From Stenomitos frigidus ULC18 (GTDB taxonomy: Bacteria; Cyanobacteriota; Cyanobacteriia; Leptolyngbyales; Leptolyngbyaceae): a stretch of 32,271 nucleotides of DNA. The translations under genes were made by a program, and so were the position numbers. Each line of letters starts with the position of its first letter. The stretch's first letter is position 1. The notes under the pieces were generated by a model. The model saw only the letters and a program-made list of their open reading frames with translations. It made no database searches and had not been told where the DNA came from. The stretch is from positions 1 to 32,271 of the forward strand of contig NZ_PVWK01000120.1 in NCBI RefSeq assembly GCF_003003795.1, read 5' to 3'. This document shows positions 4,868 to 32,271 of the stretch, one piece after another.

Positions 4868-4955
4868 CCTTAACGAATCAAATCAGCGGCAGTAGACACC
4901 CTTTAATTCAACACCAGTAGCTTCTAACTGTCCGCATGCATTTGAATTGTTAGGT
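4868..4955 (-). other. attC-like imperfect palindrome (left)
   Basis: Read on the minus strand it begins ACCTAAC (fits R'' consensus RYYYAAC) and ends GTTAAGG (6 of 7 with GTTRRRY). The outer arms pair as CC-TAAC-x3-TCAAAT-x-GCGG against their complement, with mismatches and unequal spacers (GCAT versus CA), and a non-pairing centre of about 40 bases. This is the architecture of integron attC sites. It begins 10 bases after the stop codon of the macro-domain gene on the same strand, where a cassette attC would lie. No integrase gene is in the window. It could also be a cyanobacterial palindromic repeat. Confidence 0.55.
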
Positions 4956-4964
4956 CGCTCTGTA

Positions 4965-5837: not shown

Positions 5838-5905
5838 AAAGCGTTGTTCTAGAATCTATTAAGGTTGGTCATAGAGTGAAAACCGAAGAAATTTCTATAG
5901 AAGCT

Positions 5906-7036
5906 CTAAACTTTTTTGAATTCTTTAATTGCTTTCATAAGCTTCATTCCTGTGCTCCAGCTTAGTTCTTCACCCTCAAACTCGCACCGATACAATCCTT
6001 GCAAGTTTGATGGAACGGGTAATCTTTTGTCCCATAATAAGACGACACGGCGATCGTAAAGTACAAAAGCAGCGCCAATTTCAATTAATACATTCTCATT
6101 AATTCGAGGTTCTCTACTCACCTCTCCAGAGTGGATTTGTTCAGCAGAAACAATGATAATTCCAGCTTGGCAACGGCGCATCGCACTAAACACCTTGTCA
6201 GGAACAGGAATTGCTGTTGTCTCTTCTTTGACAGCAACTTCACTCTCAATATCTGCAAGCTCTAGCATTGTCTCTACCTGCGAGACGAAATCAGTATCCC
6301 TACCATGTGATATGAACACTCGTAGCCGCTCACTAGCTTGAGCTTCATTACCCTTTCCTTGAAGGTCTGGGAGTACGTCCCCTTCTGAGGAAACGATTGG
6401 TTCAGGTGATACAGGCTTTAGAGGTTCACCCGGCAAATCTGAATCCTCAGTGGTATTAGATACCCACTCATCTGCCTGCCTAGATGGTTCTTGCCAAGGA
6501 GGAGCAGACGGACCTTCTTCTATGTGTCCTCTAAGCCTGTCTCTATTGATACTGATGCGAGTTGGCTGACCACGGCGACCGATAGTTAGTGTACCAAGCA
6601 TTGCACCTTCGACAAGGCGGAAAAAACAAACTGCTTGATCCTTAAGAGTGTTCTCGTTATCTGTAGCGTTTTCATCAGAGTGATGCTCATGCCAGAATGC
6701 CGCTACATCTACGTTCGTTGCTGTTTCAAGGCTACGGTGAAACATCCATTCGATAGCGGAGCGATAGGGAACAATACTATCAACAGCCTCTAGAAAGAGG
6801 ACTTCAGGAGCTTTAGTCTTACGTGCTAGCTCCCAACCACGATTCGAGAGTTTAATGCGCTCTCCTTCCCGTGTAATAAACCCCCACGCTTGATAAGCCG
6901 ACATCTTACGATGATCTAAAAACTTCTTGTCCAGAATTGCTTTAGCTTCAGATAGATTAGCCCCTGTAGGTTTTGTACGGAGGTAATCAATCACAGTTTT
7001 TACATCTTCGATATCGGTGAGTATCGGAAGCGGCAT
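5906..7036 (-). CDS. Winged-helix/TIR-like (CAP12-type) nucleotide-binding protein
   Basis: 376 aa. Residues 1-75 resemble a winged helix (wing-like WGFITREGERIKLSNRGWELA). Residues ~80-175 are an unrecognised helical/beta region; ~176-235 is a Pro/Glu-rich linker. The C-terminal domain (237-376) begins RVFISHGRD, has GIIIVSAEQ at 292-300, and carries NVLIEIGAAF (315-324). E319 in NVLIEIG matches the Glu of the TIR-like family found in CAP12/Pycsar effectors. Expected activity: NAD+ cleavage, or making an ADP-ribose-type signal for the macro protein. It is the first gene of the pair. Canonical ThsB proteins are mostly a lone TIR domain, so the long N-terminal part, perhaps a sensor, is unusual. 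Confidence 0.72.
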   Translation of the reverse strand: MPLPILTDIEDVKTVIDYLRTKPTGANLSEAKAILDKKFLDHRKMSAYQAWGFITREGERIKLSNRGWELARKTKAPEVLFLEAVDSIVPYRSAIEWMFHRSLETATNVDVAAFWHEHHSDENATDNENTLKDQAVCFFRLVEGAMLGTLTIGRRGQPTRISINRDRLRGHIEEGPSAPPWQEPSRQADEWVSNTTEDSDLPGEPLKPVSPEPIVSSEGDVLPDLQGKGNEAQASERLRVFISHGRDTDFVSQVETMLELADIESEVAVKEETTAIPVPDKVFSAMRRCQAGIIIVSAEQIHSGEVSREPRINENVLIEIGAAFVLYDRRVVLLWDKRLPVPSNLQGLYRCEFEGEELSWSTGMKLMKAIKEFKKV

Positions 7037-7064
7037 ATGGTGCTAGGCAGAAAAGGGGGAAAAT

Positions 7065-7093
7065 CTAATACACACTAACTTAAAATTCTTCAA
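7065..7093 (-). promoter_or_regulatory. Candidate sigma70 promoter of the TIR/macro operon
   Basis: On the minus strand TTGAAG (7093-7088) and TATTAG (7070-7065) are 17 bases apart. Transcription would start near 7058, about 22 bases before the ATG at 7036. No ribosome site is obvious. Farther upstream a CTCG-AAAAA-CGAG hairpin followed by TTTTTG (about 7105-7125) could stop read-through into the operon. Confidence 0.45.
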
Positions 7094-7137
7094 ACGGCTA
7101 CAAAAACTCGTTTTTCGAGAGCAGTGCCACTGATCAC

Positions 7138-7312
7138 CTCTCAAGAGATTAGCGGTCTAACTATTAATAAGCTGAAAATTTCTGCAATCCCACAGTGGGT
7201 GGATAGGCAGAATGGTTCGGCATAACACCCCAAATCTAGCGCTTAGGTAGAATCTTTCCGCATCATACCCTGCTGAAGGTGGATAGGCAGAATCTTTCCG
7301 CATATTTTCAGG
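7138..7312 (-). repeat. ~175-bp MITE-like repeat, left copy
   Basis: The reverse complement of this stretch matches 23230-23413 along its length, at roughly 80-85% by eye. It contains the direct motif ATTCTGCCTATCCACC twice plus a variant. Its two ends are inverted copies of each other (GGAAAGATTCTGCCTA-like start, complement at the end), more decayed in this copy. It ends TATTAATAGTTAGACCG next to the TIR operon. A short minus-strand ORF inside it reads only repeat sequence and is not a gene. Confidence 0.7.
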
Positions 7313-7554
7313 TTTACTATGGGCACGATCGCGTATGTTATGAGATACACCGTACAGTTCGCCTCTACACTCGCTATGCAAGAGCGCCCAAGGAAACTGC
7401 TCGATCGGTTATGAGATGTCATTCAGCTCAAGCACGGCGATCGTGGTATTCGAGGTGACTCTGCGAATGGTTTGAGTTTTTCTTGCCTGACATCAACAAA
7501 ACATTTGAATCTGATGAAGAAGCGTATGGGGCGATCGCTTGCTTTTTACGGCTG

Positions 7555-13900: not shown

Positions 13901-15571
13901 TTGCTCGTGGAGTTCACCATAGGTCAGGGTGAGATCGCCCGCAATGACGGCAATCTGCTCCGGTTGCTGCGGGGCTCGACGATTGAATAGGGTGTGCAAT
14001 AGCTCATCAGGAATAGTCGTTGCGGTTGCATTGATCGCATCGCGCTGTTGCAGTTGATCGATCGGAAGCAACGCTATAGAGGATTGCTGCCAAGTTTCGG
14101 GTTGATCTGCCAGTTGCCGCAATAACGTCTGGTAGGCTCCAAACATGGCTTGCAGAAGTCCCGCTGGAAACAGATCCTCTACCGCATCCCAGCTAAACAC
14201 TAGCCCCCCGTGCTGTTCGTAGACCTGACAATCGAGCCAGACCTGGGGCGTTTGCGTAATCCAGTAGACAATTTCTCCCATCCACCCCAATTGGGATAAA
14301 TCCAATAACGTACTGGTAAACACCACAGGCATCTGAGCGCTCACGCCTGTTTGCCTCAGATGAGCCAGTTCTCGCAGTACCCGAATCCCACTCAGTTGGT
14401 GGTGGTCTAAATCTTGCCAAAGCTGCTGTTGCAGTCGCAGGGCACGATCGGCAAAGGTATCCGATGGGGCATAATCCACCGCCAGGAGATTGATGGAGGA
14501 AAACACACCGACAAGGTCATTGACCTGGGGATGGAGTGGAAGCCGATTGGAGAGCGTGACATTCAACGTGAACTGAAGATGCTTACTCCAGGTGGCTAAA
14601 ACCTGTGCGTAGGCGGCTAATAAAACCCCGGAAGGAGTCAAGCCTTTCTCTTTGGCATGGGTTTTGAGTCGGTTCCAGGTAGCCGCATCCAGCCGATCGC
14701 TTTGCCGCACAAACTGGGGATGAGTAACAGTACCAGGAGTTTTCGCCAGCGGCAGCTCTGGTGCTGGCGGCAGGGTGGGCAGGCGATCGCGCCAATAGGC
14801 AAGGTCTGCCTGCGTAGTTGGCGAGTCCTGAAGCGCGGCTTCTGCCAGCACATAGTCTCGAAAAGAAAGCGGCAACGGTGGCAGAGATAAAGCCGGATTT
14901 TGATACCACTCCGCCCAATTCTGAAACAACAGAAACAGACTGCGACCATCCACAATTAAGCCATCAATGCTGATGTGTAAGCGTGTGGAATGGGTCTCTA
15001 AACGGCTGGCACGAATTTCAAATAAGGGATAGTGATCCGGTTGGCGCACCTGATGGGACATCCGCTGGCGAAGGGCGTTGAGTTGAGCCGCGATCGCTGC
15101 TTCACTTTCGGCACGCAGATCCAGAACCACTATTTCGTAAGGAGGCACCGTTTCGAGGATTTGCTGCTGACCGTTGGGATGAACGATCGCCCGGAGCATA
15201 GCGTGGCGTTTAATCACCTGTCTCCACGCATGGTTGAGTCGTGGTACATCCAGGTCTCGGCAGTCAATTTCCAGATAAACATGAGTGGATACATTGCCAA
15301 TTTCAAAGTTTCCACCGCGACCAAGCCAGTACGCCTGCTGAATATCATTGAGGGGAAAGGGTTGATGTTGTTGGGCTAGGTCAAGTGTGAGTTGCGGCGA
15401 TCGCGGCGATTGTTGCAACCGCGTCATAATTTCCTGCTTTTGACGCACAAGGGCATCGCGCAATGCCTCTGTCAAAGTCCCCTGAGGAGCGCGATAACGT
15501 AGCTGGTCGCCCTCAACCCAAAGCTGCACCTGCTGCTGGCGCAATGTTGCTAACAAAGCATCAACCGTCAT
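10973..15571 (-). CDS. NRPS module: docking-Cy-A-T-thioester reductase
   Basis: 1532 aa from ATG 15571, which overlaps the upstream TGA as ATGA and has GGGAGGAAGG just before it; a longer start at 15592 is unlikely. Order: TubC-like docking domain (1-52); heterocyclisation (Cy) domain (~70-500) with FPLNDIQQAYWLGR and DGLIVDGRS, the intact DxxxxDxxS (D203, D208, S211); adenylation (~525-1030) with YTSGSTGTPKG at 671-681; carrier protein LGGNSL (S1081); terminal reductase with TGATGYLG (1164-1171) and YVQSK (Y1324, K1328). Specificity-pocket residues read D-M-Y-N-F-G-V-L-W (D717, M718, Y721, N760, F792, G794, V818, L826, W827), nearest to Cys codes but not identical. The module should condense the PKS acyl chain with Cys (or Ser/Thr), possibly cyclise it, and release it reductively as aldehyde or alcohol. 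No oxidase domain. Confidence 0.93.
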   Translation of the reverse strand: MTVDALLATLRQQQVQLWVEGDQLRYRAPQGTLTEALRDALVRQKQEIMTRLQQSPRSPQLTLDLAQQHQPFPLNDIQQAYWLGRGGNFEIGNVSTHVYLEIDCRDLDVPRLNHAWRQVIKRHAMLRAIVHPNGQQQILETVPPYEIVVLDLRAESEAAIAAQLNALRQRMSHQVRQPDHYPLFEIRASRLETHSTRLHISIDGLIVDGRSLFLLFQNWAEWYQNPALSLPPLPLSFRDYVLAEAALQDSPTTQADLAYWRDRLPTLPPAPELPLAKTPGTVTHPQFVRQSDRLDAATWNRLKTHAKEKGLTPSGVLLAAYAQVLATWSKHLQFTLNVTLSNRLPLHPQVNDLVGVFSSINLLAVDYAPSDTFADRALRLQQQLWQDLDHHQLSGIRVLRELAHLRQTGVSAQMPVVFTSTLLDLSQLGWMGEIVYWITQTPQVWLDCQVYEQHGGLVFSWDAVEDLFPAGLLQAMFGAYQTLLRQLADQPETWQQSSIALLPIDQLQQRDAINATATTIPDELLHTLFNRRAPQQPEQIAVIAGDLTLTYGELHEQSHQIGYWLRQRGAQPNQLVAVVMEKGWEQIVAVLGVLQAGAAYLPIDPALPLERLHYVLTDGEVNLVLTQSHLRDTLNLPDSIQCLCVDADDLEAMDSPLEAIQHPDDLAYVIYTSGSTGTPKGVMIAHRGVVNAIAATNQRFEVTAADRVLALTALHHDMSVYDLFGILAAGGAIVLPEAVSQRDPVHWLELMHRHQITLWNSVPAMMEMLLESLSGNTLRNQPTIPNSLRLAFLGGDWIPLSLPERLHALVETVQLVSVGGPTETTLWNIWYPVEQVDPTWKSIPYGRPIANTRYYVLNEKLEPCPVWVPGQLYCAGVGLAKGYWRDPEKTNARFIHHPQLGRLYATGDLGRYLPNGNLEFLGRQDFQIKINGFRIEPGEIETALSQHPLVQSAVVVVAAPSDVKKALIAYIVLKNQLSAANKNDGDYADWEEQFRQALSRQLPAHMVPSSFVLLDQLPLTANGKVDRQSLAKLERHFSKAVQADDTPRNPTAAQLAAIWEELLGLEHVSIHANFFQLGGNSLLAVQLVNRIAHAFQVELPLSRLFESPTIAALSPIVEQLQTHAADGMLDTALDLASEAVLDASIRPGNDSVRSVTQPQAILLTGATGYLGAFLLYELLRRTNATIYCLVRSDTIAAGSNRLQANLEFYALWDEAFSDRIIPVLGDLSQLLLGLTPERFGQLANDIDVIYHNGAQVNFTYPYLALKAANVLGTQEVLRLAAQQKTKPVHFVSTTHVFPADPNTEAQTIWERMIPDRAQNLPTGYVQSKWVAEQLLAIARERGLPVSIYRPSFIVGHQETGAGNAQDLLFRLINGCIQLGIAPDIDLSFNIVPVDYVSQAIVHLSTQAEASGKTFHLVNPHHIAIGWKQILHWLQSLGYAIQPIAYAQWLAALQAMGDRLADNALYPLLPVFSAASKKPSTALFNLSHELQFDCQNTRSGLADTTLNCPAIDVDWLSHYLSFFIDRNLLTPNF

Positions 15572-18500
15572 AGCGCCCCTTCCTCCCAACAAACGTTCAC
15601 GCTGGCAACGGGTGGCGCTAGTTGAGCCAGCACTCGACTTGCCAATTGAGCCACCGTCGGACAGTGCAGAAACTCAGTCATACTCAGGCTCAGATTCAGA
15701 TCAGTTTCAATGCCGTGTTTGAGTTCCACCACCATTAAGGAATCCAATCCCACGTTGCAGAGCGGTTCGTGGATCGGTAATTTGGCTGCCATCCCCAACA
15801 CACGGCTGACGCGTTGTTGAAAGTAGGATTCCAATGTGTTTAGGCGATCGCCCACTGGCAAAGACCACAACTGATCTTGTGTCAATGCATCTTGCGTCAA
15901 TGGTTTATTGGTGAATGGTTTGTCGCTAGTGGCTTCCGGTGCCAACGACTGCCTGCACTGAACCTCCGGTTGCGCTGCTGTCTTGAGTGCCGTCACTGGA
16001 ATCAACGATTCGCTGATGGGTGAGAACCAATGTCGTTGCCGCTGCCAGGGATAAGTGGGTAAAGAAACGCACTGCCCCGTAGGATACAGGCGGTTCCAGG
16101 CAACGGGATATCCCTGGCGATACAGCACTCCGAGGGATTGCAGCAAAGTGGCTCGCTCTGGTTGCCCTCGCCGCAAACTGGGCAGCATCATGCCTAATCG
16201 CTGGTGCGGTTGGAGGCATTGGGCGATCGCCGTTCTTAAAACGGGATGGGGACCGATTTCAACAAACCATGAAGGCTCGGTTTGAATGAGTGCTTCCATT
16301 GCAGCCTGAAACAACACAGGCGATCGCAAATTACGGCTCCAGTAAGACGCATCCAGCGTTTGCCCATCCACCCGTTGCCCGGTCACTGTTGAGAATAACG
16401 ACACGGTAATAGGACGTGGTTGAATCGCTTGCAACGCGTGAACTAATTCATCCTGGAGCGGATCGACCTGCCAGCTATGGAACGCATAGTTGACGGGCAA
16501 AAAGCGACAGGTAATGTTCTGCTGTTCCAGGGTCTGCGCCAGGCTTTCCAGCGCAATAACATCTCCCGACAAGACCGTTGCGGTGGGACTATTGACAGCG
16601 GCGATCGATAGGTTGGGATGGTCTTGCAGCAATGGTTTGACCGCAGCGAGAGGGAGATCCACCGTTGCCATCCTGCCGCTTCCAGCCAACCGTTGTAACA
16701 GCCGACTGCGATGGAAAATCACCTGTACCGCATCGGGCAAATTCAATGCCCCCGACACATACGCTGCCGCCACTTCGCCCATACTGTGCCCCACCACTGC
16801 CTCCGGCACAACGCCCCAGGACTGCCAGAGGGCTGCCAGCGCGACTTGTAGGGCAAACAAGATGGGTTGGGCGATCGCGGTTTCCTGTAACCGAGATGAC
16901 GCTTCATCAGCAGTCAATTCATGGAGCAACGACCAGCTCGCACAGTCATAGAACAACGCATCACACTGCTGCAACGCTGCTTGAAAAACGGGTTCCCGCT
17001 CCAGCAGTTCCCTTCCCATCGCCCACCACTGCGGTCCCTGTCCGGAGAAGACAAAGACAATGGGGGGCTGATTCAAGGAGTGAGACTGACGACTGGAGTC
17101 AATAGGTTCCTCGATTGAGTTGGCATCTTGTAGAAACGCATCCAGATGTTCCACCATTTCTGTGTGCGAGTGACCAACCACGGGCAGACGATACGGATGA
17201 TGGCTGCGACGCACACTGGCGGTATAGCAGATGTCTGATAAGGGAAGCCTTCTGGCAGTCTCAGACAAGAGAAACGATCGATAGCTGAGAGCGAGTGCCT
17301 GCAACGCCACTGGACTGCGTGCAGACAATGGTAGTAGTTGAGCAAGTGGCATGGTTGGTGCTTGTTTGCGCTCAATGTCTGTAGGGGGCGCTTCTGACAA
17401 GACGACATGGGCATTTGTGCCGCCAAAGCCAAAGGAACTAACTCCCGCCAAGCGTCGATCGCCCGCCCAGGAAACAAGAGCCGTGGGAATCCAAAAGGGC
17501 GTTTCTTCCAGAGAAATTTTGGGATTCAACGTTTCTAAATGCAGATGGGGTGGAATCTGACGGTGTTGGAGGGCAAGGACTGTTTTGATCAACCCTGCAA
17601 TACCAGCCGCCGCTTCCAAATGCCCGATGTTAGTTTTGACGGAACCGATCGCACATCGTTGCTCCGGCGATCGTCCGTCCATCAACACTGCCTTCAAAGC
17701 GCTTAGCTCAATTGGATCGCCCAGAGCCGTACCCGTGCCATGTGCTTCCACATAACCAATCTCATCCGGTCTAACCCCTGCCTTTTGCAGCGCTTTTTGC
17801 ATCACTCGTTGTTGCGCTAAACCATTGGGAGCTGTTAAGCCATTGCTCAAACCATCCTGGTTGACGGCTGATCCCTTAATGACCGCGAGAATGGTATCCC
17901 CTGCTTCGATCGCACGCTTCAGCGGCTTGAGTACCACGACACCACAACCTTCGCCTCGCCCATAACCATCGGCACTGGCATCAAACGTTTTACATCGCCC
18001 GTCTGGTGATAACATACCTGCTTGGGAAAGCGCGATCGTGAGCGTTGGTGACAACATCAGATTAACTCCGCCTACCAATGCCAAATCGCACTCCCCGGTT
18101 CGCAAACTCTGACACGCCAGATGCACAGCAACCAGGGAAGATGAGCAGGCTGTATCAACTGCCATGCTCGGACCCTGGAAGTTCAGCAGGTAAGAGAGAC
18201 GATTCGCCGCCATACTGTGCGCGTTGCCCGTTGCGGTATAAGCGCTAGCCTCAGCCGTATGTGACTGCAACTGGGCGTAATCCTGACTGCTGATGCCCAT
18301 AAACACGCCCGTCTCACTGCCAGCCAGTTGAGCGATCGATTGTCCAGCCGCTTCTAACGCTTCCCATGCCACTTCCATCAACAAGCGATGTTGGGGATCG
18401 ATCCGGTCTGCCTCACGAGGCGCGATGCCAAAAAACTGCGAATCGAAACCATCAATCTGGTCTAAGAAACCGCCCTGAACGTTGCTAAGCTTGTTGGCTG

Positions 18501-20781
18501 CTGATGGTTCAACCTGAGACCGCCAGCGATCGCGCGGAACGCTCTGAATCGCATCCTTTCCAAATTGAATTAACTGCCAGAATGCCTCTGGACTATCTGA
18601 ACCGGGAAAGCGACAGCCAATGCCGATGATGGCAATATCATCGGTCGATTCAGTGACAGATTGAATGGTATCGCGATTGGCTTCTGACTGCTGTTTCGCA
18701 TTTGAATTTATAGCAGTATGATCAATCGCCAGTGCTTGAGCAAGGGCAGCGATCGTCGGATAGTCATAGATCACGGTGGGAGATAAGCGGCACTCCAACC
18801 AATCTTCCAATTCTCCTGCAAGACTGACCGCTGCCAATGACCCCAAGCCATAGGCTGCAAGCGGTTGATGGATATCGATCGCGCTGGCTGAAACACCCAA
18901 TTTCTCGGCAAGGCGAGCGATCAACCAGGTTTGAATCTCTCGACTTGTTTTTTCGGGTGGTAATCCAGATGGGACAGAAAGAGGTTGTTTAAACCGTCCA
19001 TCGGAATCTGCCGATCGTCCCTGCACTGAAATGATTTGAATTGACTGATGAATAATGGGTAACTGCTCTGTCAGAAACGCCTCCCGGCAGGCAAAGTGCT
19101 GGATCTTGCCGCTGGAAGTCTTTGGGATACTGCCCAATTTCACAAGGATAATGCCATATACTTCCAGGTCATGTTGCTCCGCCACCGCCCGACGAATGGC
19201 TGCGATCATTTCCTCTAAAAGAACCGGATCGCGATCGTGCCGATCAATTTCTCGCACAATGACCAGCCGTTCTTCACCCGCTGCTTCCACCGCAAAAGCG
19301 GCACTACAGCCAGATTGCAACGATACATGGCTGCGATCGACCGTCCATTCAATGTCCTGCGGGTAGTAATTGCGTCCCCGCATAATCATCAAATCTTTCA
19401 ATCGCCCGGTAACAAACAACTCGCTATTTTGTAAAAAGCCCAGGTCTCCGGTGCGTAAAAAATGAACATCATCCTGATCGTTGAGACGTGCCTGAAAAGT
19501 CGCTTTCGTTTGCTCTGGTTGCTTCCAATACCCTTGAGCCACACTGTTTCCTGTTACCCAGATTTCTCCAACTTGCTCCGGTTGACAGGGTGTTAGTGTT
19601 TCAGGATCAACAATCACAACCGCCTGCGTTGGCAACGTGCGACCACAGCTTACCAGCGTCTGACTGTCTTCACCAATCGAAGCGATCGCCTGGTTCTGCG
19701 TTAACCTCGCTTTCTGAAATGCTTTCACAACGGGTGGTTCAGCCTTTCGACCACCTGTAACAATGAGTGTCGCCTCTGCCAAGCCATAACAGGGGTAGAA
19801 CGCTTCTCGACGAAACCCAGAGGGTGCAAATGCTTCCGCAAAACGATCGAGCGTTCCAGCATGGATCGGTTCAGCCCCGTTGAAAGCAATCTCCCAACCG
19901 CTGAGATCCAACTCCAATCGCTGCTCAGGAGTCGTTTTACGAATGCACAATTCATAGGCGAAATTCGGACCACCGCTAACCGTCGCTTTCGCTTGAGAAA
20001 TTGCCTGAAGCCAGCGCAGGGGGCGTTGCAGAAATGTCACGGGCGACATCAGCGTAACTGGAAACCCAGCATAAAGCGGTTGCAGAATGCCACCGATCAG
20101 CCCCATATCATGGTAAGGCGGTAGCCAAATGACACCCTGGCTTTGAGGATGCGTTTGAAAACTGGTAGAAATCAACGATAGGTTATGAAGCAAATTACCG
20201 TGGGTGAGCATTACCCCTTTGGGAAGGGACGTTGACCCTGAGGTGTATTGCAACACTGCCAACGTGTCAGGATGTATTGTAATTTCCTGCCAATCAGTCG
20301 CTAAAGACGGTGAAATGGTATCTGTCGCCAGCCAGTGAATGGCTTTTGCATGATCCATCTGGCTCCAAACAGACTGGTTTTTAGCTAGACTTGCTTCTGG
20401 CGTGAGGATTAAAGCTACTTCAGCGTCTTTCGTGATCGTCGCAATGCGAGGAACATTACGGGTGTTCCGAGGTGGATAGGCAGGCACCGCTACTACTCCC
20501 GCGTATAAACACCCAAACAAAGTAGCAATGTAATCTAATCCAGGCGGATAAAGGATTAACGCTCGCTCTCCAACCACACAGATTTGCTGAAGTTGAGCGG
20601 CGATCGCCCGCGCTTTTCGATCAAGGTCTGCATAAGATAGACTGACGCTCTCACTCTCACCGTCAATCAAGAACGTAAATGCAGTTCGAGACGTATTATG
20701 ACTGGCACGAAAACGAATCAACTCAACCAACGTTGAGTATTGGGGAGAAACTTCAATGATTTTACCGAGGAAACTATTCAT
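15568..20781 (-). CDS. Hybrid FAAL-ACP-KS-AT-ACP polyketide synthase
   Basis: 1737 aa, first gene of the operon. Residues 1-585: fatty acyl-AMP ligase (YTSGSTSLPKG 179-189, GYGLAEATL-type motif at 331-339, TGDLG 444-448), which activates a fatty acid and loads ACP1 (620-690, S648 in GLGSL). KS 714-1130 with the triad C879 (DTACSSS), H1014 (EAHGTGT) and H1054 (NIGHLEAAAG). AT 1240-1530 with S1333 (GHSMGEVAAA) and H1435 in YAFHS; one motif leans methylmalonyl, the other malonyl. ACP2 1645-1720 with S1681 (GLDSL). There is no KR, DH or ER, so the product is a beta-ketoacyl chain one extension longer than the starter. AAGGAAG lies about 11-12 nt before ATG 20781. Its TGA overlaps the NRPS ATG. 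Confidence 0.94.
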   Translation of the reverse strand: MNSFLGKIIEVSPQYSTLVELIRFRASHNTSRTAFTFLIDGESESVSLSYADLDRKARAIAAQLQQICVVGERALILYPPGLDYIATLFGCLYAGVVAVPAYPPRNTRNVPRIATITKDAEVALILTPEASLAKNQSVWSQMDHAKAIHWLATDTISPSLATDWQEITIHPDTLAVLQYTSGSTSLPKGVMLTHGNLLHNLSLISTSFQTHPQSQGVIWLPPYHDMGLIGGILQPLYAGFPVTLMSPVTFLQRPLRWLQAISQAKATVSGGPNFAYELCIRKTTPEQRLELDLSGWEIAFNGAEPIHAGTLDRFAEAFAPSGFRREAFYPCYGLAEATLIVTGGRKAEPPVVKAFQKARLTQNQAIASIGEDSQTLVSCGRTLPTQAVVIVDPETLTPCQPEQVGEIWVTGNSVAQGYWKQPEQTKATFQARLNDQDDVHFLRTGDLGFLQNSELFVTGRLKDLMIMRGRNYYPQDIEWTVDRSHVSLQSGCSAAFAVEAAGEERLVIVREIDRHDRDPVLLEEMIAAIRRAVAEQHDLEVYGIILVKLGSIPKTSSGKIQHFACREAFLTEQLPIIHQSIQIISVQGRSADSDGRFKQPLSVPSGLPPEKTSREIQTWLIARLAEKLGVSASAIDIHQPLAAYGLGSLAAVSLAGELEDWLECRLSPTVIYDYPTIAALAQALAIDHTAINSNAKQQSEANRDTIQSVTESTDDIAIIGIGCRFPGSDSPEAFWQLIQFGKDAIQSVPRDRWRSQVEPSAANKLSNVQGGFLDQIDGFDSQFFGIAPREADRIDPQHRLLMEVAWEALEAAGQSIAQLAGSETGVFMGISSQDYAQLQSHTAEASAYTATGNAHSMAANRLSYLLNFQGPSMAVDTACSSSLVAVHLACQSLRTGECDLALVGGVNLMLSPTLTIALSQAGMLSPDGRCKTFDASADGYGRGEGCGVVVLKPLKRAIEAGDTILAVIKGSAVNQDGLSNGLTAPNGLAQQRVMQKALQKAGVRPDEIGYVEAHGTGTALGDPIELSALKAVLMDGRSPEQRCAIGSVKTNIGHLEAAAGIAGLIKTVLALQHRQIPPHLHLETLNPKISLEETPFWIPTALVSWAGDRRLAGVSSFGFGGTNAHVVLSEAPPTDIERKQAPTMPLAQLLPLSARSPVALQALALSYRSFLLSETARRLPLSDICYTASVRRSHHPYRLPVVGHSHTEMVEHLDAFLQDANSIEEPIDSSRQSHSLNQPPIVFVFSGQGPQWWAMGRELLEREPVFQAALQQCDALFYDCASWSLLHELTADEASSRLQETAIAQPILFALQVALAALWQSWGVVPEAVVGHSMGEVAAAYVSGALNLPDAVQVIFHRSRLLQRLAGSGRMATVDLPLAAVKPLLQDHPNLSIAAVNSPTATVLSGDVIALESLAQTLEQQNITCRFLPVNYAFHSWQVDPLQDELVHALQAIQPRPITVSLFSTVTGQRVDGQTLDASYWSRNLRSPVLFQAAMEALIQTEPSWFVEIGPHPVLRTAIAQCLQPHQRLGMMLPSLRRGQPERATLLQSLGVLYRQGYPVAWNRLYPTGQCVSLPTYPWQRQRHWFSPISESLIPVTALKTAAQPEVQCRQSLAPEATSDKPFTNKPLTQDALTQDQLWSLPVGDRLNTLESYFQQRVSRVLGMAAKLPIHEPLCNVGLDSLMVVELKHGIETDLNLSLSMTEFLHCPTVAQLASRVLAQLAPPVASVNVCWEEGAL

Positions 20782-23002: not shown

Positions 23003-23229
23003 CTTGTGGTTTCCTCATGAGATCGTCAGTGCTATAGCCTATGGCTTACAACGTATTGCCTGCAAATGCTCTGATCTAGATTAAACGGTTTATTGACTTT
23101 CTCAAGCAGGCTCTTTCAAGTTAGGCACACCGCACTCATCCGAGGTCTAACAGTGACAAAGAGGTTTCACCTCACAGCGCCCCCGTACCAAATCTTTTGA
23201 CTATGCAAGCCGCTTCCCGTTGGCATACA

Positions 23230-23413
23230 ATCTGGAAAAGATATGGAAAGATTCTGCCTATCCACCTTCAGCAGCGTATGATGCGGAAAGATTCTACCCA
23301 AGCACTAAATTTGAGGCGTTATGCTGAATCATTCTGCCTATCCACCCACTGCGGGATCTTAGGCAGAAACTTTCCGTCTATTAATCGTTAGACCGACAAT
23401 TCTCTTGTTGGGG
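23230..23413 (+). repeat. ~175-bp MITE-like repeat, right copy
   Basis: This is the inverted copy of 7138-7312. It begins near ATGGAAAGATTCTGCC and ends GGCAGAAACTTTCCGTCT, so its ends form an imperfect terminal inverted repeat of about 20 bases. Inside are repeated ATTCTGCCTATCCACC blocks. The homology runs on through TATTAATCGTTAGACCG (GTTAGAC at 23387-23393) and fades by about 23413. No transposase ORF. A 64-codon plus-strand ORF across it is repeat sequence only. Confidence 0.7.
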
Positions 23414-23600
23414 CGTAGCGAAAGGTTGCCTGTGAGTTGCAATACTCAAGTAGGCGTAAGTTTTTGGTTCGGGCGTTGTTTGGAAATTGTTTAGGGGCGA
23501 TTGCGCCTAAAGTCCGTAAGTTGGCTATAATAACCCACTACCCCCTTTGCTTATTCCTGCACAGTAGGCTGCGGCAGCTTGTAGTCAGTCCAACTAAGTT
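23414..23600 (+). promoter_or_regulatory. Upstream region of the right-hand gene block
   Basis: About 190 bases with no gene. A clear TATAAT stands at 23526-23531; the best upstream box, TTGCGC at 23501-23506, is 19 bases away, so the -35 is weak. A small GGCGATTGCGCC hairpin overlaps it. The 5' leader to ATG 23601 would be about 60 bases. Confidence 0.35.
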
Positions 23601-25118
23601 ATGGAAACCCAGGTCGTTCTTTACATTTATTCATTTCCTTCATATTTAAGAGAGCAACCGAGGGTAAAAATTGGTAGAACCTCTGGAAGTATTGATGCTG
23701 ATCCTACGGAATTGGCATGGCAGCGTATACGCGCACAGATCAGAACCTCGCATCCAGAAGAGCCTTATTTATTAGGTGCAATTAAAATTCCGGATGAGCG
23801 TGTAGAGTCAATAATTCATTTTCAGTTGACAGCGAAGGGATACCATGTCTCAGAGGCACCTGGTATTGAGTGGTTTAGGTTCCCTAGTCGACAAGAATTA
23901 CAAGATTTTGTAAATAAACTTTATCGTGCTGTAATTTTCGACGATTTCTCAGAACTGGTCGGGGGACGAAGAGATATTGAGGGAGACTCGTTTGAGTCTG
24001 TTGTTGCTGCATTTGGAGTGAAAAAGTTAAGCGGTAGCGAATTTAGACGTGAGACTGAGTTAGTTAGGATGCTTGATAGTGAACTATCTCCTCTCTATCC
24101 TGGTTTCCCTCAATGGCTAGACAGAACAATGAGCGATTCAAGTACTGTCTTCAATGTAGCTTACAGAGATAGACAAGCTATTGGCGTTGCAATTTGGAAA
24201 CCTAAAAGTCGTGGAATAGCTAAATTATCAACTCTCTATGTTTATCAAGATTTTCGACGCAGTGGTATTGGGAGAAACCTGATTTTAACCTGATTTGAAC
24301 AGTGGAAATCAGAGAGAATTAGAAGAGCTTTTGTTACTACAGCTAGAGTTGAGCTTATTCCATTCTTTGAACGTTATGGCTTTTGGGTAGAAGGTATAGG
24401 GCGTGAGATATACGAACGCGAAGGTCATCAACCAGAATGGTTTTTAACGAAGCTACTATTTTATGATCCTGATACAAACAATTTAGATGTTATAAATAAG
24501 GCGAAATATTTATTTCCATCGATTATTGGGTCTTCTTATGATCCTGAAGGTAGAAAGGAAGTCACACAGATTCAATACAACGATGCAACTATCGAGTTAC
24601 TAGACTCAGATGCAAATTCTGTTCATCGTTGCTCTTTTCATTCCTGGCTCAATCTGACATATCCCGCAGAATCAATCTATGCCCCTCGAACGGCTTACGT
24701 TATACCAATTCGTCCTCAGTTTCTAATTCAAATATTTCAAGCTGGCAAGACAGTTTATTACGGCAAGCCCACTTGTATTCAAGATGATATGAGAGGGGCA
24801 TCGATATTGTTTTATGCTAGCCGTCCTATATCTGGTGTTGTAGCGATCGCCAGAATCGTCAATCGATATATTGGAACACCTGCTCAACTCTACAGTGATT
24901 TAGGTGTAAGAGGCGTTCTTACATTAGAGCAGATTGGTGGAGAAGCACAGACTCGACATGCTGTTGAGTTTGACTTCCTCATGCCACTTCGTCAAGCAAT
25001 CAGTCGAAATGACTTATTAAGCAATGGTGTCCTGAATGGAACACCACAAACTATGCATAGTATTTCCTTAGAACGTTATGGAAGAGCCGTTGAACTTGGA
25101 GGTATTTATGCAGGATAA
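23601..25118 (+). pseudogene. GIY-YIG-like / GNAT / PUA-like fusion, interrupted by one in-frame TGA
   Basis: A single 505-codon frame runs from ATG 23601 to TAA 25118 except for TGA at 24291-24293 (codon 231). Residues 1-108 look like a T5orf172/MUG113-type GIY-YIG domain: LYIYSF, VKIGRTS (22-28), E69, H73, EWFRFP (90-95). Residues ~180-275 are a GNAT domain: RRSGIGRN acetyl-CoA loop just before the stop, then ELIPFFERYGF after it. The C-terminal third contains RGASILFYASRP and GVVAIARI, in the style of a PUA/ASCH-like fold. The stop falls in the helix after the acetyl-CoA loop, so the truncated 230-aa product would lack a full GNAT and the PUA-like part. The gene overlaps the next one by 11 bases. 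It is AT-rich, with one GCGATCGC at about 24843. Confidence 0.7.
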
Positions 25119-25605
25119 GCATATTAAGGCACTCAGTATCAAACAGGTTTATGCTGAACGTATTATTGCTGGCAACAAGAAGATTGAGTTAAGAAAGCGC
25201 CCAATCGGTATGGAATTAGGCGATCTTGTTCTTCTATATGAAACTACTCCTGATTCTGTTATAAAAGGAGGCTTTATAGCGGATAAGACTATATCTTTAT
25301 CTCCTTCTAAAATGTGGAACCAGTATCGTCACATTATGGGAGTAGACAAAGAGTTCTATGACGTTTATTTCGAGAGCTGCGAGTTTGCATACGGTACTTT
25401 AATACATCAAAGTTTTTCCTTCCCTGCACTGTCTCTAAAACAAATACAAAAACTTTGTTCGGGATTTGTACCACCGCAAGCCACAATCAACTGGCGTGAG
25501 GATTGGTACATTCAAGCTGAGTGGCTTGATGCACTTCATAAGGGAAGAAATCAATTGATGCAAGAGGAGCGATTGGGCGAACAGTTAAGTTTATTACTAC
25601 CTTAG
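25108..25605 (+). CDS. ASCH-domain protein
   Basis: 165 aa from ATG 25108, chosen because GGAGG at 25097-25101 is well placed; it overlaps the end of the preceding gene by 11 bases, so the two are probably translationally coupled. Residues 7-31, KALSIKQVYAERIIAG then IELRKR, followed by GDLVLLYET at 38-46, are the classic ASCH (PUA-superfamily) core, a small beta-barrel thought to bind RNA or modified nucleotides. The C-terminal half contains SLKQIQKLCSGFVPPQ and an aromatic WREDWYIQAEWL. Function unknown. The context (GNAT/PUA-like, HNH, kinase) suggests nucleic-acid recognition within a defence or modification module. Confidence 0.75.
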   Translation: MQDKHIKALSIKQVYAERIIAGNKKIELRKRPIGMELGDLVLLYETTPDSVIKGGFIADKTISLSPSKMWNQYRHIMGVDKEFYDVYFESCEFAYGTLIHQSFSFPALSLKQIQKLCSGFVPPQATINWREDWYIQAEWLDALHKGRNQLMQEERLGEQLSLLLP

Positions 25606-25663
25606 AATAGATTGGCTTAATCTGAACCTTTGATAATTAACCACCTGTCTACTCCAAATTCGT

Positions 25664-26455
25664 ATGCGATGTATTTTCTGCAAAAATTCTTCCGATAGCT
25701 CTCGTAGTGTAGAGCATATAATTCCTGAATCGCTTGGTAATACGAAGCAAGTTTTACCGCGCGGGGTTGTCTGCGACAAGTGCAACAATTATTTTGCCAG
25801 AAAAGTAGAAAAGCCTTTTCTGGACTCATCTGGTATTACAGAATTAAGAAGCTTTCAGTTCATTCCTAACAAGAGAGGTAATATACCTTTTACTGTAGGT
25901 TATATGAATGGTAAACATCCCGTGCAAGTTTCTCCGCAAGGAGAGGGCGACGTTAAAGCATTTATCAGAGTTGAGACAGAAGTTTTTAATAAAATTATCA
26001 ATGAAAAAAATGGTTTTCTGATTGTGCCTACTGGTAAGTTGCCTGAGCAAGCTAATTTGGTGTCACGATTCTTAGCAAAAGTTGCTGTAGAGGTACTTGC
26101 TCAGCGTCTTTTAAAGACTCTAGGAGGGCTTGATCATCTCATTGATGAACCTGACTTTGATCCTATTCGTAATTATGCTCGGTTAGGACAACCTCAAGAG
26201 TGGGCATACCATACAAGAACAATTTACAACGTTAATGACAAATGTATCGACCTCAGTGGAAAGTCGCATAAAGTGGTCTATGAGTACGATCTGCTTTTCA
26301 CACCGCATCAAGAAGGCTACTTGATTCTTGCACTCTTTGGTATAGAGTTAGCTATAAATATTGGAGGACCTGATGTAGATGGTTATATAGCGTGGCTGAC
26401 AGAAAATAACAAGGCTAGCCCTCTATATATAGGCAAGAATAAAGATGTTATTTGA
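25664..26455 (+). CDS. HNH endonuclease-type protein
   Basis: 263 aa. The N-terminus is a compact HNH with zinc-binding cysteines: C3xxC6, then VEHIIPESLGN (E17, H18), then VCDKCNNYF with C37xxC40 and N41. This is the HNH_5-like pattern of nucleases that cut DNA using a beta-beta-alpha metal site. Residues 60-263 are unrecognised and rich in beta strands and hydrophobic segments; they may hold target recognition. Unlike EVE-HNH restriction enzymes, the PUA-type domain is in the neighbouring gene. The gene is 58 bases after the ASCH gene on the same strand; no good ribosome site precedes ATG 25664. AT-rich. Confidence 0.78.
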   Translation: MRCIFCKNSSDSSRSVEHIIPESLGNTKQVLPRGVVCDKCNNYFARKVEKPFLDSSGITELRSFQFIPNKRGNIPFTVGYMNGKHPVQVSPQGEGDVKAFIRVETEVFNKIINEKNGFLIVPTGKLPEQANLVSRFLAKVAVEVLAQRLLKTLGGLDHLIDEPDFDPIRNYARLGQPQEWAYHTRTIYNVNDKCIDLSGKSHKVVYEYDLLFTPHQEGYLILALFGIELAINIGGPDVDGYIAWLTENNKASPLYIGKNKDVI

Positions 26456-26488
26456 TCAATTCAAAAGCCTATCAAGAAAATAAATTAT

Positions 26489-27025
26489 ATGAGGCAACGT
26501 AGAATAATTTTTGTCGCCGGAGTACATGGCGTTGGTAAAACAACACTTTGCAATAATCTAGTGGCTAGATTTAGCATTGAACATTTTTCAGCGAGTAATT
26601 TGATTGCCAAAGAGAAAGAAGAGGAGCATCTTCGGAGTAAACAAGTTGAAAATATAGCTGGGAATCAAGACTATCTGGTAGTAGCGTTAAATAAATACTT
26701 GAATAGTACAAATTGGTACTTACTCGATGGACATTTCTGTCTTTTAAACAAGGATAATGAAATCACTAGAATTCCGTACTCAACTTATGAGGGCATTGCC
26801 CCTAGCGCAATTCTTGTCTTGATTGACAAACCTGAAAATATTTATGCTCGTTTAAATTCAAGGGATAGTATCAGACACGATTTGTCCTTGTTGGAGTCTT
26901 TTCAGGAACAGGAAATCCTTTATGCTGAATACATTAGGGATGAATTAAGCATTCCTTATTTAATGAGTAATCCCACTGAGGACAAAGACGAGATATTCAC
27001 TTTTATTGAAAGTTTATTAGTTTAG
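26489..27025 (+). CDS. P-loop nucleoside/nucleotide kinase-like ATPase
   Basis: 178 aa. The Walker A motif is GVHGVGKTT (11-19), close to the GxxGxGKT of archaeal-type adenylate kinases and AAA_18-like kinases. LLDGHF (78-83) could be the Walker B-like strand, and ILVLIDKPENIYARLNSRDS (108-127) matches the strand plus arginine-bearing lid region of nucleotide kinases. Substrate unknown; a nucleotide kinase or RNA/DNA end kinase would fit. It is the last gene of the block, 33 bases after the HNH gene, and is followed after about 45 bases by the attC-like palindrome. AT-rich. Confidence 0.75.
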   Translation: MRQRRIIFVAGVHGVGKTTLCNNLVARFSIEHFSASNLIAKEKEEEHLRSKQVENIAGNQDYLVVALNKYLNSTNWYLLDGHFCLLNKDNEITRIPYSTYEGIAPSAILVLIDKPENIYARLNSRDSIRHDLSLLESFQEQEILYAEYIRDELSIPYLMSNPTEDKDEIFTFIESLLV

Positions 27026-27068
27026 ACATAAACAGGGCTGGAATAATGATGCAAGCTCTTACCGAACG

Positions 27069-27155
27069 GTCTAACAATTCCGTTGCACCCGACCGTATCA
27101 AGTCGGCTGGTTGAGTTCGAGAGTTTGTTTGCGCGGGTGAACGGAGCCGTTAGTT
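27069..27155 (+). other. attC-like imperfect palindrome (right)
   Basis: The site opens GTCTAAC (fits RYYYAAC) and closes GTTAGTT (most of GTTRRRY). The outer arms CTAAC-x3-TCCGTT-G-CACCCG and CGGGTG-AACGGA-x3-GTTAG pair fully apart from three internal mismatches and one extra G in the left arm, like the extrahelical base of integron attC sites. About 40 bases lie between the arms. It directly follows the last gene of the four-gene block on the same strand. Confidence 0.65.
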
Positions 27156-27265
27156 TCTTTGAAATTGCGTTGGAAAGACGATCGCAAACACGCTACCCTC
27201 ATCTAGTTGCGATACCGTAAGGTTGCCGTCCATGCCTTCGACCAGTGTTTCACGATCGCCAAGCC
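27150..27265 (-). pseudogene. Histidine kinase C-terminal remnant with frameshift
   Basis: On the minus strand GLAIVKH (the G2-box end of a HATPase domain) is followed, after loss of one base, by LVEGMDGNLTVSQLDEG and SVFAIVFPTQFQRN, then TAA at 27152-27150. These are the last ~38 residues of a sensor histidine kinase; nothing recognisable lies upstream of GLAIVKH. The stop overlaps the GTTAG end of the attC-like site, so the four-gene block appears to abut, or to have inserted at, the end of an old kinase gene. Confidence 0.65.
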
Positions 27266-27344
27266 TCATTCATCTCCTCCAATCAACCAGGTATGCACTT
27301 CATCGACTCGATCATCTTATTCGTTCCATTCAATGAGCCGTTGA

Positions 27345-31329: not shown

Positions 31330-32271
31330 GGGGTACGACACCGTTCCTGGCAATTAAGTACCACATCGCCTGAAACGTTTGCTAGGAAGTGTTTACAGAC
31401 AGCGATTTCCCTCAAAAATCAGCCATCGGATGACTTTGGAGAGACGACAGGGAGACCAAAGTTAATGGGGGGAGGACAGCGATCCATGTCCAAACTGTAA
31501 CGACCAAACCGATTAATGTGTTGCGTCCAATAAGGACTGAGCGCCGCAATGGCTTCTGGTTCAATCTTCATGCCCTCCTGCAGCAGTTCATGGAGGATGC
31601 GACTGAGCTCGAAGACGTTGTAGAAAATCAAACAGTTAGCCACTAAATGGTTGTACTTCACCCGTTTGCGCTGCTCATCACGATTGTTAGTGGCAATGAC
31701 ACCGTCACCACCAAAGGCTAACCACTGCAAGAAGCCATTGAAAGACTCACTCTTGTTGGTGGCTGCCTGAATGACCGCCCGGAGGTCAGGCTCATGGATG
31801 TACTGGAGTAGAAAGCCCGTTCTAACGGCATAGCCCAACTCTTGAAATGCCTGGTAAAGCTTGTTCTTCGCACTATTGGTGCCCAATTTCCGGAGGATCG
31901 TTGAAGCGGCAATCTTGCCCGCCTTGATCGACAGCGTGACCCGTAACATGTCCGGGAGGTGCGTTTTGATCAGAGTCCAGTTCACGCTGTGGGAGAACAG
32001 TTTGTCGATGTGGGTGTAGCGGATGGACGGATCGCTCCGGTAGAACTTGAGGTCTTGCCAGCCGCGAATCCGTGGCATCAAAGTGATGCCTAAGAGGTAA
32101 GACAGTCCAAAGACCGTTGTACTTTGCGCATGGGTATCCCCGTGAATGGTGTCTGGTTGAATGGCGGAAGTGTTTTTCAGCAAGCCATCCAGTAAGGAGA
32201 TTTCTGGCAAAGAATTTACCCAAGCTTCTAGAATATTCTTATGTTCTTGCAAAAAGTAAGGCACAAGCGTT
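31330..32271. mobile_element. Tn3-family transposon, one end and 3' part of the transposase
   Basis: The inverted end starts GGGGTACGACACCG (31330) and has the usual GGGG start and a TTAAG near its inner side (31354-31358), like Tn3/Tn4430 ends of about 38 bp. It is directly next to the interrupted MOSC reading frame. TTCAT (31325-31329) should be one copy of the 5-bp target duplication. The element continues past the window. Confidence 0.75.
31419..32271 (-). CDS. tnpA: Tn3-family transposase (TnpA), C-terminal part
   Basis: The frame is open to the window edge (it continues ...TLVPYFLQ before the first internal start), so the true start lies outside. Tn3 marks: GDTHAQSTTVFGLSYLLGI with the second catalytic Asp, LMPRIR, then NKSESFNGF with the catalytic Glu, and the ending LSPYWTQHINRFGRYSLDMD typical of TnpA C-termini. 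About 284 residues of an enzyme near 1,000 are visible. It performs replicative transposition with 5-bp target duplications. The stop at 31419 is ~50 bases inside the inverted end. No inactivating change is visible. Confidence 0.92.
   Translation of the reverse strand, partial: TLVPYFLQEHKNILEAWVNSLPEISLLDGLLKNTSAIQPDTIHGDTHAQSTTVFGLSYLLGITLMPRIRGWQDLKFYRSDPSIRYTHIDKLFSHSVNWTLIKTHLPDMLRVTLSIKAGKIAASTILRKLGTNSAKNKLYQAFQELGYAVRTGFLLQYIHEPDLRAVIQAATNKSESFNGFLQWLAFGGDGVIATNNRDEQRKRVKYNHLVANCLIFYNVFELSRILHELLQEGMKIEPEAIAALSPYWTQHINRFGRYSLDMDRCPPPINFGLPVVSPKSSDG

What the first reader, a model, noticed from the sequence alone, without database searches (positions are those of the whole stretch)
23387..27155. 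Four-gene GIY-YIG/GNAT/PUA - ASCH - HNH - P-loop kinase block: candidate undescribed defence or modification module
Seen: four same-strand, AT-rich, closely packed genes (11-bp overlap, then 58- and 33-base gaps) with two candidate nucleases (GIY-YIG-like, HNH), two PUA-superfamily-like readers, an acetyltransferase and a nucleotide kinase. Known: PUA-like EVE or SRA domains joined to HNH act in modification-dependent restriction (EVE-HNH enzymes). Inference: here reader and nuclease are split into separate proteins, and an acetyltransferase and kinase could build, mark or sense a modified nucleotide. I do not know this gene set as a named system.
Basis: partly seen in the sequence, partly recalled or inferred. 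Interest (0 to 1): 0.75.

Follow-up and report, generated by a model that had tools for sequence, protein, structure and literature searches.

The report
Integron cassette carrying variant defence module
Four linked cyanobacterial genes form a variant of a little-studied predicted anti-virus gene set that is packed as one mobile integron cassette; its main effector gene is broken here, but most of the set recurs across distant microbes.

Summary
The block is real and more than chance, but not undescribed: orf1+orf2 match PADLOC's candidate pair PDC-M11A/B, and nuclease-GNAT-PUA + ASCH + AAA_17 is the (PIN)-GNAT-EVE/ASCH/AAA_17 set that Bell et al. 2020 predict to be a toxin-antitoxin/virus-conflict system. 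New here: (1) orf1 has a T5orf172 nuclease where relatives often have PIN; (2) HNH_5 is a recurrent partner: around 80 HNH homologues, 26 ASCH frames lie within 4 kb and 0 farther out in comparable sequence; (3) the finding's limits are those of an integron cassette: an attI crossover (DNA 77% and 76% identical to that beside this genome's two full intI genes) and an attC hairpin, without intI. The window holds a second such unit with a Thoeris-like pair. orf1 is stopped by an in-frame TGA; of six cyanobacteria with this orf1 type or its remnants, one copy is intact, while ASCH is kept in five. Best reading: a mobile, TA-like anti-phage module whose nuclease-acetyltransferase effector is controlled by the ASCH protein, kinase and HNH being accessories. 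Identity and cassette status are well supported; the mechanism is inferred, activity untested.

The parts
23229..23394 (+). attI-like site without intI; crossover in GTTAGACC at 23387-23394
   Evidence: 77% identical to C6 and 76% to C33, just upstream of the two full intI genes, similarity ending at the crossover; a full intI beside such a site also in other genomes
23388..27149 (+). the gene cassette proper (about 3.76 kb, four genes)
   Evidence: first bases GTTAGACC (23387-23394) are the exact reverse complement of GGTCTAAC (27068-27075), as expected of R'/R'' of a circular cassette (read; the same 8-mer also occurs at 23144-23151); attI and attC at the two ends
23601..25118 (+). orf1: T5orf172 (GIY-YIG type) nuclease - GNAT - ASCH/PUA-like tail (PDC-M11A-like), broken
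   Evidence: intact 506-codon relative in genome G153 (L038)
23619..23915 (+). T5orf172 (GIY-YIG type) domain of orf1
   Evidence: PF10544 1.2e-5, residues 7-105
24102..24386 (+). GNAT acetyltransferase domain of orf1 (end of range taken over from the intact relative)
   Evidence: PF00583/PF13508/PF13673
24291..24293 (+). in-frame TGA that splits orf1
   Evidence: searches show relatives without it
24471..25115 (+). C-terminal ASCH/PUA-like reader domain of orf1
   Evidence: hhalign vs ASCH alignment, PDB profile (97), AlphaFold2 model pLDDT 76.7 (103), Foldseek/VIA (109, 110)
25108..25605 (+). orf2: ASCH protein (PDC-M11B)
   Evidence: PADLOC 2.2e-21, ZmASCH in PDB
25664..26455 (+). orf3: HNH_5 endonuclease-like protein
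   Evidence: PF14279 1.3e-12; relatives
26489..27025 (+). orf4: AAA_17 P-loop kinase
   Evidence: PF13207 1.8e-16; alignment with module kinases
27069..27155 (+). attC site (87 bp) closing the cassette
   Evidence: hairpin with unpaired spacers and one bulged base on the bottom strand; scan score 15.2; partial copies, 82% identical, on contigs C160 and C57

Best explanation
The block is one four-gene integron cassette lodged at an attI site that has no integrase gene beside it. Its cargo is a variant of the predicted conflict module nuclease-GNAT-PUA (M11A) + ASCH (M11B) + AAA_17 kinase, with HNH_5 as an optional but recurrent fourth gene. Most likely mechanism (inferred): M11A is the toxic effector. 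Its ASCH-like tail docks it on a particular RNA or DNA (perhaps one with modified bases), the GNAT domain acetylates the target (for example a charged tRNA or a base) and the nuclease domain (often PIN in relatives, T5orf172 here) cuts. The ASCH protein restrains it or controls its expression (in alphaproteobacterial relatives it carries a helix-turn-helix). The small kinase phosphorylates a nucleotide-like signal or the target, and the HNH protein adds DNA cleavage. On phage infection the balance tips and the cell or the phage genome is attacked. Shown here: gene content, profiles and tail fold, linkage, cassette anatomy, decay of orf1. Inferred: every biochemical step and the anti-phage role. 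In this strain orf1 is broken, so the unit is probably inactive.
For: PDC-M11A/B matches. Bell et al. 2020 describe the same operon with PIN. HNH link: tags ATK 7, AT- 18, A-K 1, -T- 1, --K 1, none 52 of 80 loci; ASCH ORFs 26 in 565,075 bases within 4 kb of HNH, 0 in 495,413 beyond; the label changes 16 times on the HNH tree, at least 7 forced by starred branches, against 25.5 when shuffled. Kinase next to ASCH also in G153 and G022. Tail and orf2 share the ASCH fold. Cassette: attC, attI, genome intI. In this genome other attI sites are followed by a Thoeris-like pair, Lamassu genes and a NACHT protein. Purifying selection in orf1: dN/dS 0.126 vs G005, 0.153 vs G153.
Against: No test of the whole module is known to me; only one relative of orf2 (ZmASCH) has been assayed in what I saw. 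In Cyanobacteria HNH and ASCH co-occur only in this genome (ASCH in 22, HNH in 4 of 292). The RNA-cleft residues of ZmASCH are only partly kept in orf2: Tyr47 yes, Lys53 and Ser128 no, so it may be only a binder. PADLOC tallies beside attI sites of relatives were not clearly richer than on the upstream side. 'orf1 broken, ASCH kept' is suggestive only: by gene length alone, five of five breaks would fall in orf1 rather than orf2 with probability about 0.2 (my arithmetic). The linkage profiles were iterated on the same loci, and the 80 HNH loci are the best of 121, some of them close relatives.
Confidence: 0.6

Rival explanations
1. A non-defensive nucleic-acid modification or RNA-quality module: GNAT makes an acetylated base, ASCH proteins read or remove it, nucleases clear mis-modified molecules.
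For: ASCH relatives include a single-strand RNase (ZmASCH) and an N4-acetylcytidine amidohydrolase (YqfB); Iyer et al., as cited by Bell et al., proposed DNA-base acetylation.
Against: The Thr of the YqfB triad seems to be Glu in orf2 (motif comparison by eye, partly recalled). Patchy distribution (7 of 386 cyanobacterial genomes have any orf1 match at E<=1e-10), mobile cassette and repeated breakage do not fit a housekeeping role.
Confidence: 0.18
2. A chance pile-up: selfish GIY-YIG and HNH nucleases next to an unrelated acetyltransferase and kinase.
For: HNH and GIY-YIG families include homing nucleases (recalled); HNH occurs without the module in 52 of 80 loci.
Against: 26 vs 0 ASCH neighbours near vs far; module genes beside the HNH in Rhizobium, Azospirillum and Prevotella records; all four genes share one cassette and one strand.
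Confidence: 0.05
3. A phage-borne counter-defence cassette (GNAT-EVE as in prophages), captured by the integron.
For: Bell et al. place PIN-less GNAT-EVE commonly in prophages. PHROG phage-protein families match: phrog_10674 covers the Rhizobium relative of orf1 almost end to end (2e-207), phrog_3136 orf2 (9.4e-21), phrog_761 orf4 (7.3e-14), phrog_35254 part of orf3 (1.9e-9).
Against: The intact orf1 relative has no tblastn match at 1e-5 in 50,697 phage records and no viral-contig pattern match (both find close relatives only); five viral HNH loci lack the partner genes in the 2.8-12.8 kb held; PIN-bearing versions are tied to host defence loci.
Confidence: 0.12
4. A dead relic: the cassette was a defence module but now has no function in this strain (not exclusive of the best explanation).
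For: orf1 broken in 5 of 6 genomes with the GIY type or its remnants; the unit lacks intI.
Against: orf2-orf4 are open; dN/dS 0.09-0.14 in orf2 and 0.11 in orf4 (orf3 not tested); the breaks differ, so they look recent and independent.
Confidence: 0.3

Closest known systems
PADLOC candidate system PDC-M11 (M11A + M11B)
   Same: orf1 tail and orf2 match M11A and M11B; same adjacency; intact relative of orf1 matches M11A at 2.4e-16
   Different: N-terminal T5orf172 nuclease; kinase and HNH are not part of the PADLOC pair as far as the model names show
(PIN)-GNAT-EVE + ASCH + AAA_17 operons (Bell et al. 2020, PMC7641849; Iyer et al., cited there)
   Same: GNAT fused to a C-terminal PUA-superfamily domain, ASCH partner, AAA_17 kinase; predicted TA/virus-conflict role
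   Different: T5orf172 in place of PIN; tail closest to ASCH rather than EVE; HNH_5 partner ('HNH' occurs once in the paper's main text, as EVE-HNH fusion; figures and supplements not seen); integron cassette
ZmASCH of Zymomonas mobilis (PDB 5guq, 5gus; PMC5615036)
   Same: fold of the orf1 tail and sequence of orf2
   Different: Lys53 and Ser128 of its RNA cleft are not kept in orf2
Defence genes in integron cassettes (Darracq 2025, Kieffer 2025, Getz et al., seen only as cited in PMC12409362)
   Same: anti-phage genes as attC cassettes
   Different: here a four-gene cassette behind an attI without intI, in a cyanobacterium

Membership tests
PDC-M11 (PADLOC) | M11A protein | tested here: met
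   3.5e-9 for the C-terminal piece; 2.4e-16 for the intact relative; the upstream piece (nuclease + part of GNAT) has no match
PDC-M11 (PADLOC) | M11B ASCH protein next to it | tested here: met
   2.2e-21; 11-bp overlap
PDC-M11 (PADLOC) | anti-phage activity | not testable with these tools
   no experiment; no paper in the library holds the name PDC-M11
(PIN)-GNAT-EVE/ASCH/AAA_17 module | GNAT with C-terminal PUA-superfamily domain | tested here: met
(PIN)-GNAT-EVE/ASCH/AAA_17 module | the C-terminal domain is EVE in particular | tested here: inconclusive
   ZmASCH ranks first (Z 16.5); THYN1 and 2eve match by Foldseek at 8e-5 and 2e-4; Pfam EVE hits 7 of 49 relatives
(PIN)-GNAT-EVE/ASCH/AAA_17 module | N-terminal PIN (frequent, not obligatory) | tested here: not met
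   T5orf172 instead; of 49 relatives T5orf172 hits 1, the PIN models 12, 5, 2 and 1
(PIN)-GNAT-EVE/ASCH/AAA_17 module | ASCH gene and AAA_17 gene beside it | tested here: met
EVE-HNH modification-dependent restriction enzyme | reader and HNH in one protein | tested here: not met
   separate genes
Integron gene cassette | attC at the 3' end, complementary cassette ends | tested here: met
Integron gene cassette | inserted at attI | tested here: met
   by similarity to intI-adjacent DNA; binding by IntI not tested
Complete integron | intI beside attI | tested here: not met
   tblastn of both IntI against the window: none at 1e-2; intI is elsewhere in the genome
Integron gene cassette | excision as a circle by IntI | not testable with these tools
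   needs a recombination assay
Toxin-antitoxin system | toxin neutralised by its partner | not testable with these tools
   only indirect: breakage of orf1 with orf2 kept

The most novel reading that the evidence does not exclude
In this cyanobacterial lineage attI sites have been scattered over the genome and stripped of intI, and act as single-slot ports that a resident integrase serves in trans, several of them holding one multi-gene conflict system (here the GIY-YIG/GNAT/ASCH/HNH/kinase module, a Thoeris-like pair, Lamassu), so that whole defence operons can be swapped as cassettes.
Probability: 0.2. Interest if true: 0.85.

Novelty: new variant of a known kind. Interest (0 to 1): 0.6.

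Why it matters
It ties an uncharacterised candidate defence family (PDC-M11) to a specific, testable architecture: a variable nuclease (PIN or T5orf172) on an acetyltransferase-reader, an ASCH partner and a recurrent HNH. It suggests that multi-gene defence-like modules can travel as single integron cassettes in cyanobacteria, and it points to dispersed attI sites without integrase, which cassette finders that look for intI or clusters of attC may overlook (inference).

Tried and rejected
Empty-site search: joining the window flanks and comparing with the 82% similar stretch on contig C110 and with three relatives gave no clean empty site. The similarity to C110 runs about 40 bases into the attC, so C110 looks like a second right end with a decayed attC rather than an empty site. 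The GST gene upstream is found in 1 of the 29 other genomes, where the similarity stops at 23066, before the attI.

The first attC scan missed the 27069 site because of its right box GTTAGTT; the scoring was relaxed after I had seen the site by eye, with shuffled controls (2 sites at >=15 in the window, 0.1 per shuffle). The scans were relaxed further and had no shuffles. The hairpin energy alone is not unusual (z -1.5, 13 of 200 shuffles as good).

AlphaFold2 of whole orf1 failed (pLDDT 48.9), probably because the aligned relatives carry PIN at the N-terminus; only the tail model is used. A PDB profile search with the HNH alignment found nothing.

Do attI sites of relatives carry defence genes? 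62 ORFs downstream and 67 upstream of attI, drawn from 29 regions, were scanned against PADLOC; the family tallies (149 vs 81 families, kinases on both sides, only the first 25 shown) do not give a count of proteins and I call it inconclusive. attC-like sites were commoner downstream than upstream of attI (12 vs 1 of 30 regions; L224 and L232 show the same site, so 11 vs 1 of 29).

tblastn of the intact orf1 relative in plasmids and phages: no match; viral-contig scans with orf1 and orf2: nothing. Promoter/terminator scan at chance level. Rfam: none. Considered and dropped: EVE-HNH restriction enzyme; recoding of the stop (the two stop-bearing genomes have different stops at different places). 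One search was mis-specified (one base aligned), and one search took the wrong frames as IntI; one search repeats it with the right ones.

Dropped or arguable rows: for the HNH tree four loci were left out (L058, L059, L070 as duplicates of listed loci, L066 broken); the 31 'module' rows include the window, three plasmid loci and the partial L098 and L104, while L085 (kinase fragment only) counts as without. In one search, 20 of the 21 ASCH genomes other than G000 were fetched (G224 not). In some searches I fetched 30 of the 58 attI matches outside the own genome listed, mostly the better ones.
Full report
WHAT IS THERE. Four same-strand frames lie at 23601-25118, 25108-25605, 25664-26455 and 26489-27025, GC 0.37-0.41 against about 0.50 around them. 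Pfam gives T5orf172 (of the GIY-YIG superfamily, recalled) + GNAT for the first half of orf1, ASCH/DUF3850 for orf2 (just below the curated cut-offs), HNH_5 for orf3 and AAA_17 for orf4. orf1 is one frame with an in-frame TGA at 24291-24293, inside the GNAT domain. The orf1 tail, blank in Pfam, is an ASCH-superfamily domain: PADLOC M11A/M11B matches, hhalign to the orf2 family 97.1%, ZmASCH in a PDB profile search, and a tail model (pLDDT 76.7) with ZmASCH first (Foldseek 6e-10; Z 16.5, rmsd 2.7, 140 aligned), followed by YTH, EVE and other PUA-like folds.

KNOWN NAME. PADLOC lists the orf1 tail and orf2 as PDC-M11A and PDC-M11B; no paper in the library holds that name. Bell et al. 2020 (passages and section 10 read) describe (PIN)-GNAT-EVE fusions, almost always with an ASCH gene and often an AAA_17 gene, and predict a toxin-antitoxin/virus-conflict role; they credit Iyer et al. 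for an earlier description (not read). So three of the four genes are a known, untested module. That 'PDC' means phage-defence candidate is recalled and fits the papers listed (listing only).

WHAT DIFFERS. (a) Nuclease: of 49 M11A-like proteins scanned, PIN models hit 12, 5, 2 and 1 (these may overlap) and T5orf172 hit 1, the intact relative L038; many have neither at E<=0.01. Of 386 cyanobacterial genomes 7 have an orf1 match at E<=1e-10; six are of the GIY type or remnants of it (G022 and G251 are assigned by remnants only) and one (G101) is another M11A type. (b) HNH: from 121 HNH relatives in genome contigs the best 80 were kept. Of these, 25 have M11A-like + ASCH genes within 4 kb (7 with the kinase too), 3 have one or two parts, 52 none; ASCH frames number 26 in 565,075 bases within 4 kb and 0 in 495,413 bases farther out. 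Hosts include Pseudomonadota, Acidobacteriota, Bacteroidota, Clostridia, Planctomycetota, Elusimicrobia (partial) and a Thermoplasmata archaeon (titles). Some loci are close relatives (four clostridial ones), and the profiles were iterated on these loci. On an HNH tree of 86 rows (31 labelled as having the module) the label needs 16 changes (7 forced by starred branches; shuffled 25.5), i.e. it is clustered but was gained or lost repeatedly. In plasmids 8 records have the HNH; of the 6 that I opened 3 carry module genes: Rhizobium WSM4643, Azospirillum and Prevotella. Against: in 292 cyanobacteria ASCH occurs in 22 and HNH in 4, together only here.

INTEGRON CASSETTE. The genome has two full intI genes (TIGR02249 469 and 459 bits, cut-off 265), two partial ones and weaker fragments. 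At 27069-27155 lies an 87-bp attC-like hairpin, with partial copies, 82% identical, on C160 and C57. Bases 23229-23393 are 77% and 76% identical to DNA directly upstream of the two full intI genes, and the similarity ends at the GTTAG(AC) crossover. The cassette's first bases GTTAGACC (23387-23394) are the exact reverse complement of GGTCTAAC at the start of the attC (27068-27075), as expected for a circularised cassette. No intI match is in the window. Thus the finding's limits are the ends of one 3.76-kb cassette. Cassettes generally hold one frame, two having also been seen (PMC8618304, passages).

SECOND UNIT AND OTHERS. On the minus strand 7314-7154 is another attI (86% to the first), then a TIR gene (7036-5906, PF10137; PADLOC PDC-S35, not ThsB), a ThsA-Macro gene (5837-4965, PF20016 1.2e-26; PADLOC ThsA 9.2e-44) and an attC at 4955-4868. 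The own genome has 9 attI-like matches at E<=0.001 plus a weaker one on C57. C87's is followed by LmuA, LmuC and a split LmuB (Lamassu); C33's (with intI) by a NACHT protein; C57's by an Arr-ms/TPR protein; C6 is an ordinary array; the first genes behind C26, C100 and C139 gave no PADLOC match, and C22 lies at a contig end. In relatives, 11 of 20 genomes (own included) have such sites. Of 30 regions fetched (29 distinct sites), attC-like sites follow in 12 (11 distinct) and precede in 1. Full intI lies next to the site in L229, L230, L234 and L237, and near another copy in the L224/L232 stretch; short or weak intI remnants lie beside it in L210, L212, L216 and L225; in L217 one is farther off, and L221 and L226 have distant weak matches. 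So these orphan attI sites look mainly like integrons that lost intI. The PADLOC comparison of the two sides in relatives was inconclusive.

DECAY OF ORF1. Among six cyanobacteria: G000 in-frame TGA, G005 in-frame TAG elsewhere, G331 interrupted by an insert with a TnpB-like gene (named by eye), G022 only the tail end, G251 only about 42 N-terminal residues, G153 intact. ASCH persists in five (none found in the G251 stretch; in G022 it ends a few codons early); the kinase is kept in G000, G153 and G022. orf1 dN/dS is 0.126 (vs G005) and 0.153 (vs G153), and 0.143 and 0.168 in the tail, downstream of the stop, so the loss looks recent. This fits a costly effector with a retained partner, but by length alone five of five breaks in orf1 rather than orf2 have a probability near 0.2, so it is a hint.

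MECHANISM. Inferred: ASCH-like tail as reader, GNAT and nuclease as effector arms, ASCH protein as antidote/regulator, kinase and HNH as accessories. ZmASCH is an RNase for single-stranded RNA; mutants of Tyr47, Lys53 and Ser128 bind or cut less (PMC5615036, passages). orf2 keeps the Tyr only, so binding rather than cutting is likelier. YqfB-type amidohydrolases use Lys21, Thr24 and Glu74 (PMC9599836, passages); orf2 and its relatives have a G-x-K-x-x-E-x-R motif (G, K, E and R invariant in 20 rows), in which I find no such Thr (placement by eye, partly recalled). That integron cassettes hold anti-phage genes is reported for Vibrio (PMC12409362, passages).

VERDICT. A new variant of a known candidate kind, in an unusual vehicle. 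My odds: identity about 0.9, cassette about 0.9, defence role about 0.6, the detailed mechanism about 0.35.

Noticed in passing
window 4868-7314 (minus strand): Second attI-cassette-attC unit with a TIR gene and a ThsA-Macro gene (Thoeris-like), also without intI.
   Followed up: partly
G000:C87, locus L176 5049-8766 (minus strand): attI-like site followed by Lamassu genes LmuA, LmuC and LmuB split in two frames; no attC-like site was found there.
   Followed up: partly
G000:C33, locus L072 919-4443: Full intI, attI, then a 739-aa NACHT protein as the next gene.
   Followed up: partly
G000 and relatives, loci L167-L199, L210-L239: Several attI-like sites per genome in this family, many without intI beside them, some with N-terminal intI remnants.
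   Followed up: partly
L119 5559-9964 and L123 2242-6705: HNH gene flanked by GNAT-tail proteins on both sides, one of about 513 aa and one of 362-368 aa.
   Followed up: no
L126, L127, L130, L131, L138, L144, L148: Clostridial M11A is 622-628 aa; the one scanned on its own (L126) has an extra N-terminal ASCH before PIN.
   Followed up: no
L208 5036-8380: G331 orf1 interrupted by an insert with a TnpB-like gene (by eye); ASCH intact.
   Followed up: partly
window 27109-27315 and G000:C110 (locus L161 1459-1669): The right part of the attC and the DNA behind it are about 80% identical to a stretch on C110: another right end with a decayed attC?
   Followed up: no
window 15568-20781 (minus strand): Large synthase gene; the translation looks like fatty-acyl-AMP ligase plus polyketide synthase by eye.
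   Followed up: no
window 31419-32264 (minus strand): Tn3-family transposase fragment at the window end.
   Followed up: no
G000:C57, locus L076 5977-7703 (minus strand): Weak attI, Arr-ms (rifampin ADP-ribosyltransferase-like)/TPR protein and attC: possibly another orphan unit.
   Followed up: no
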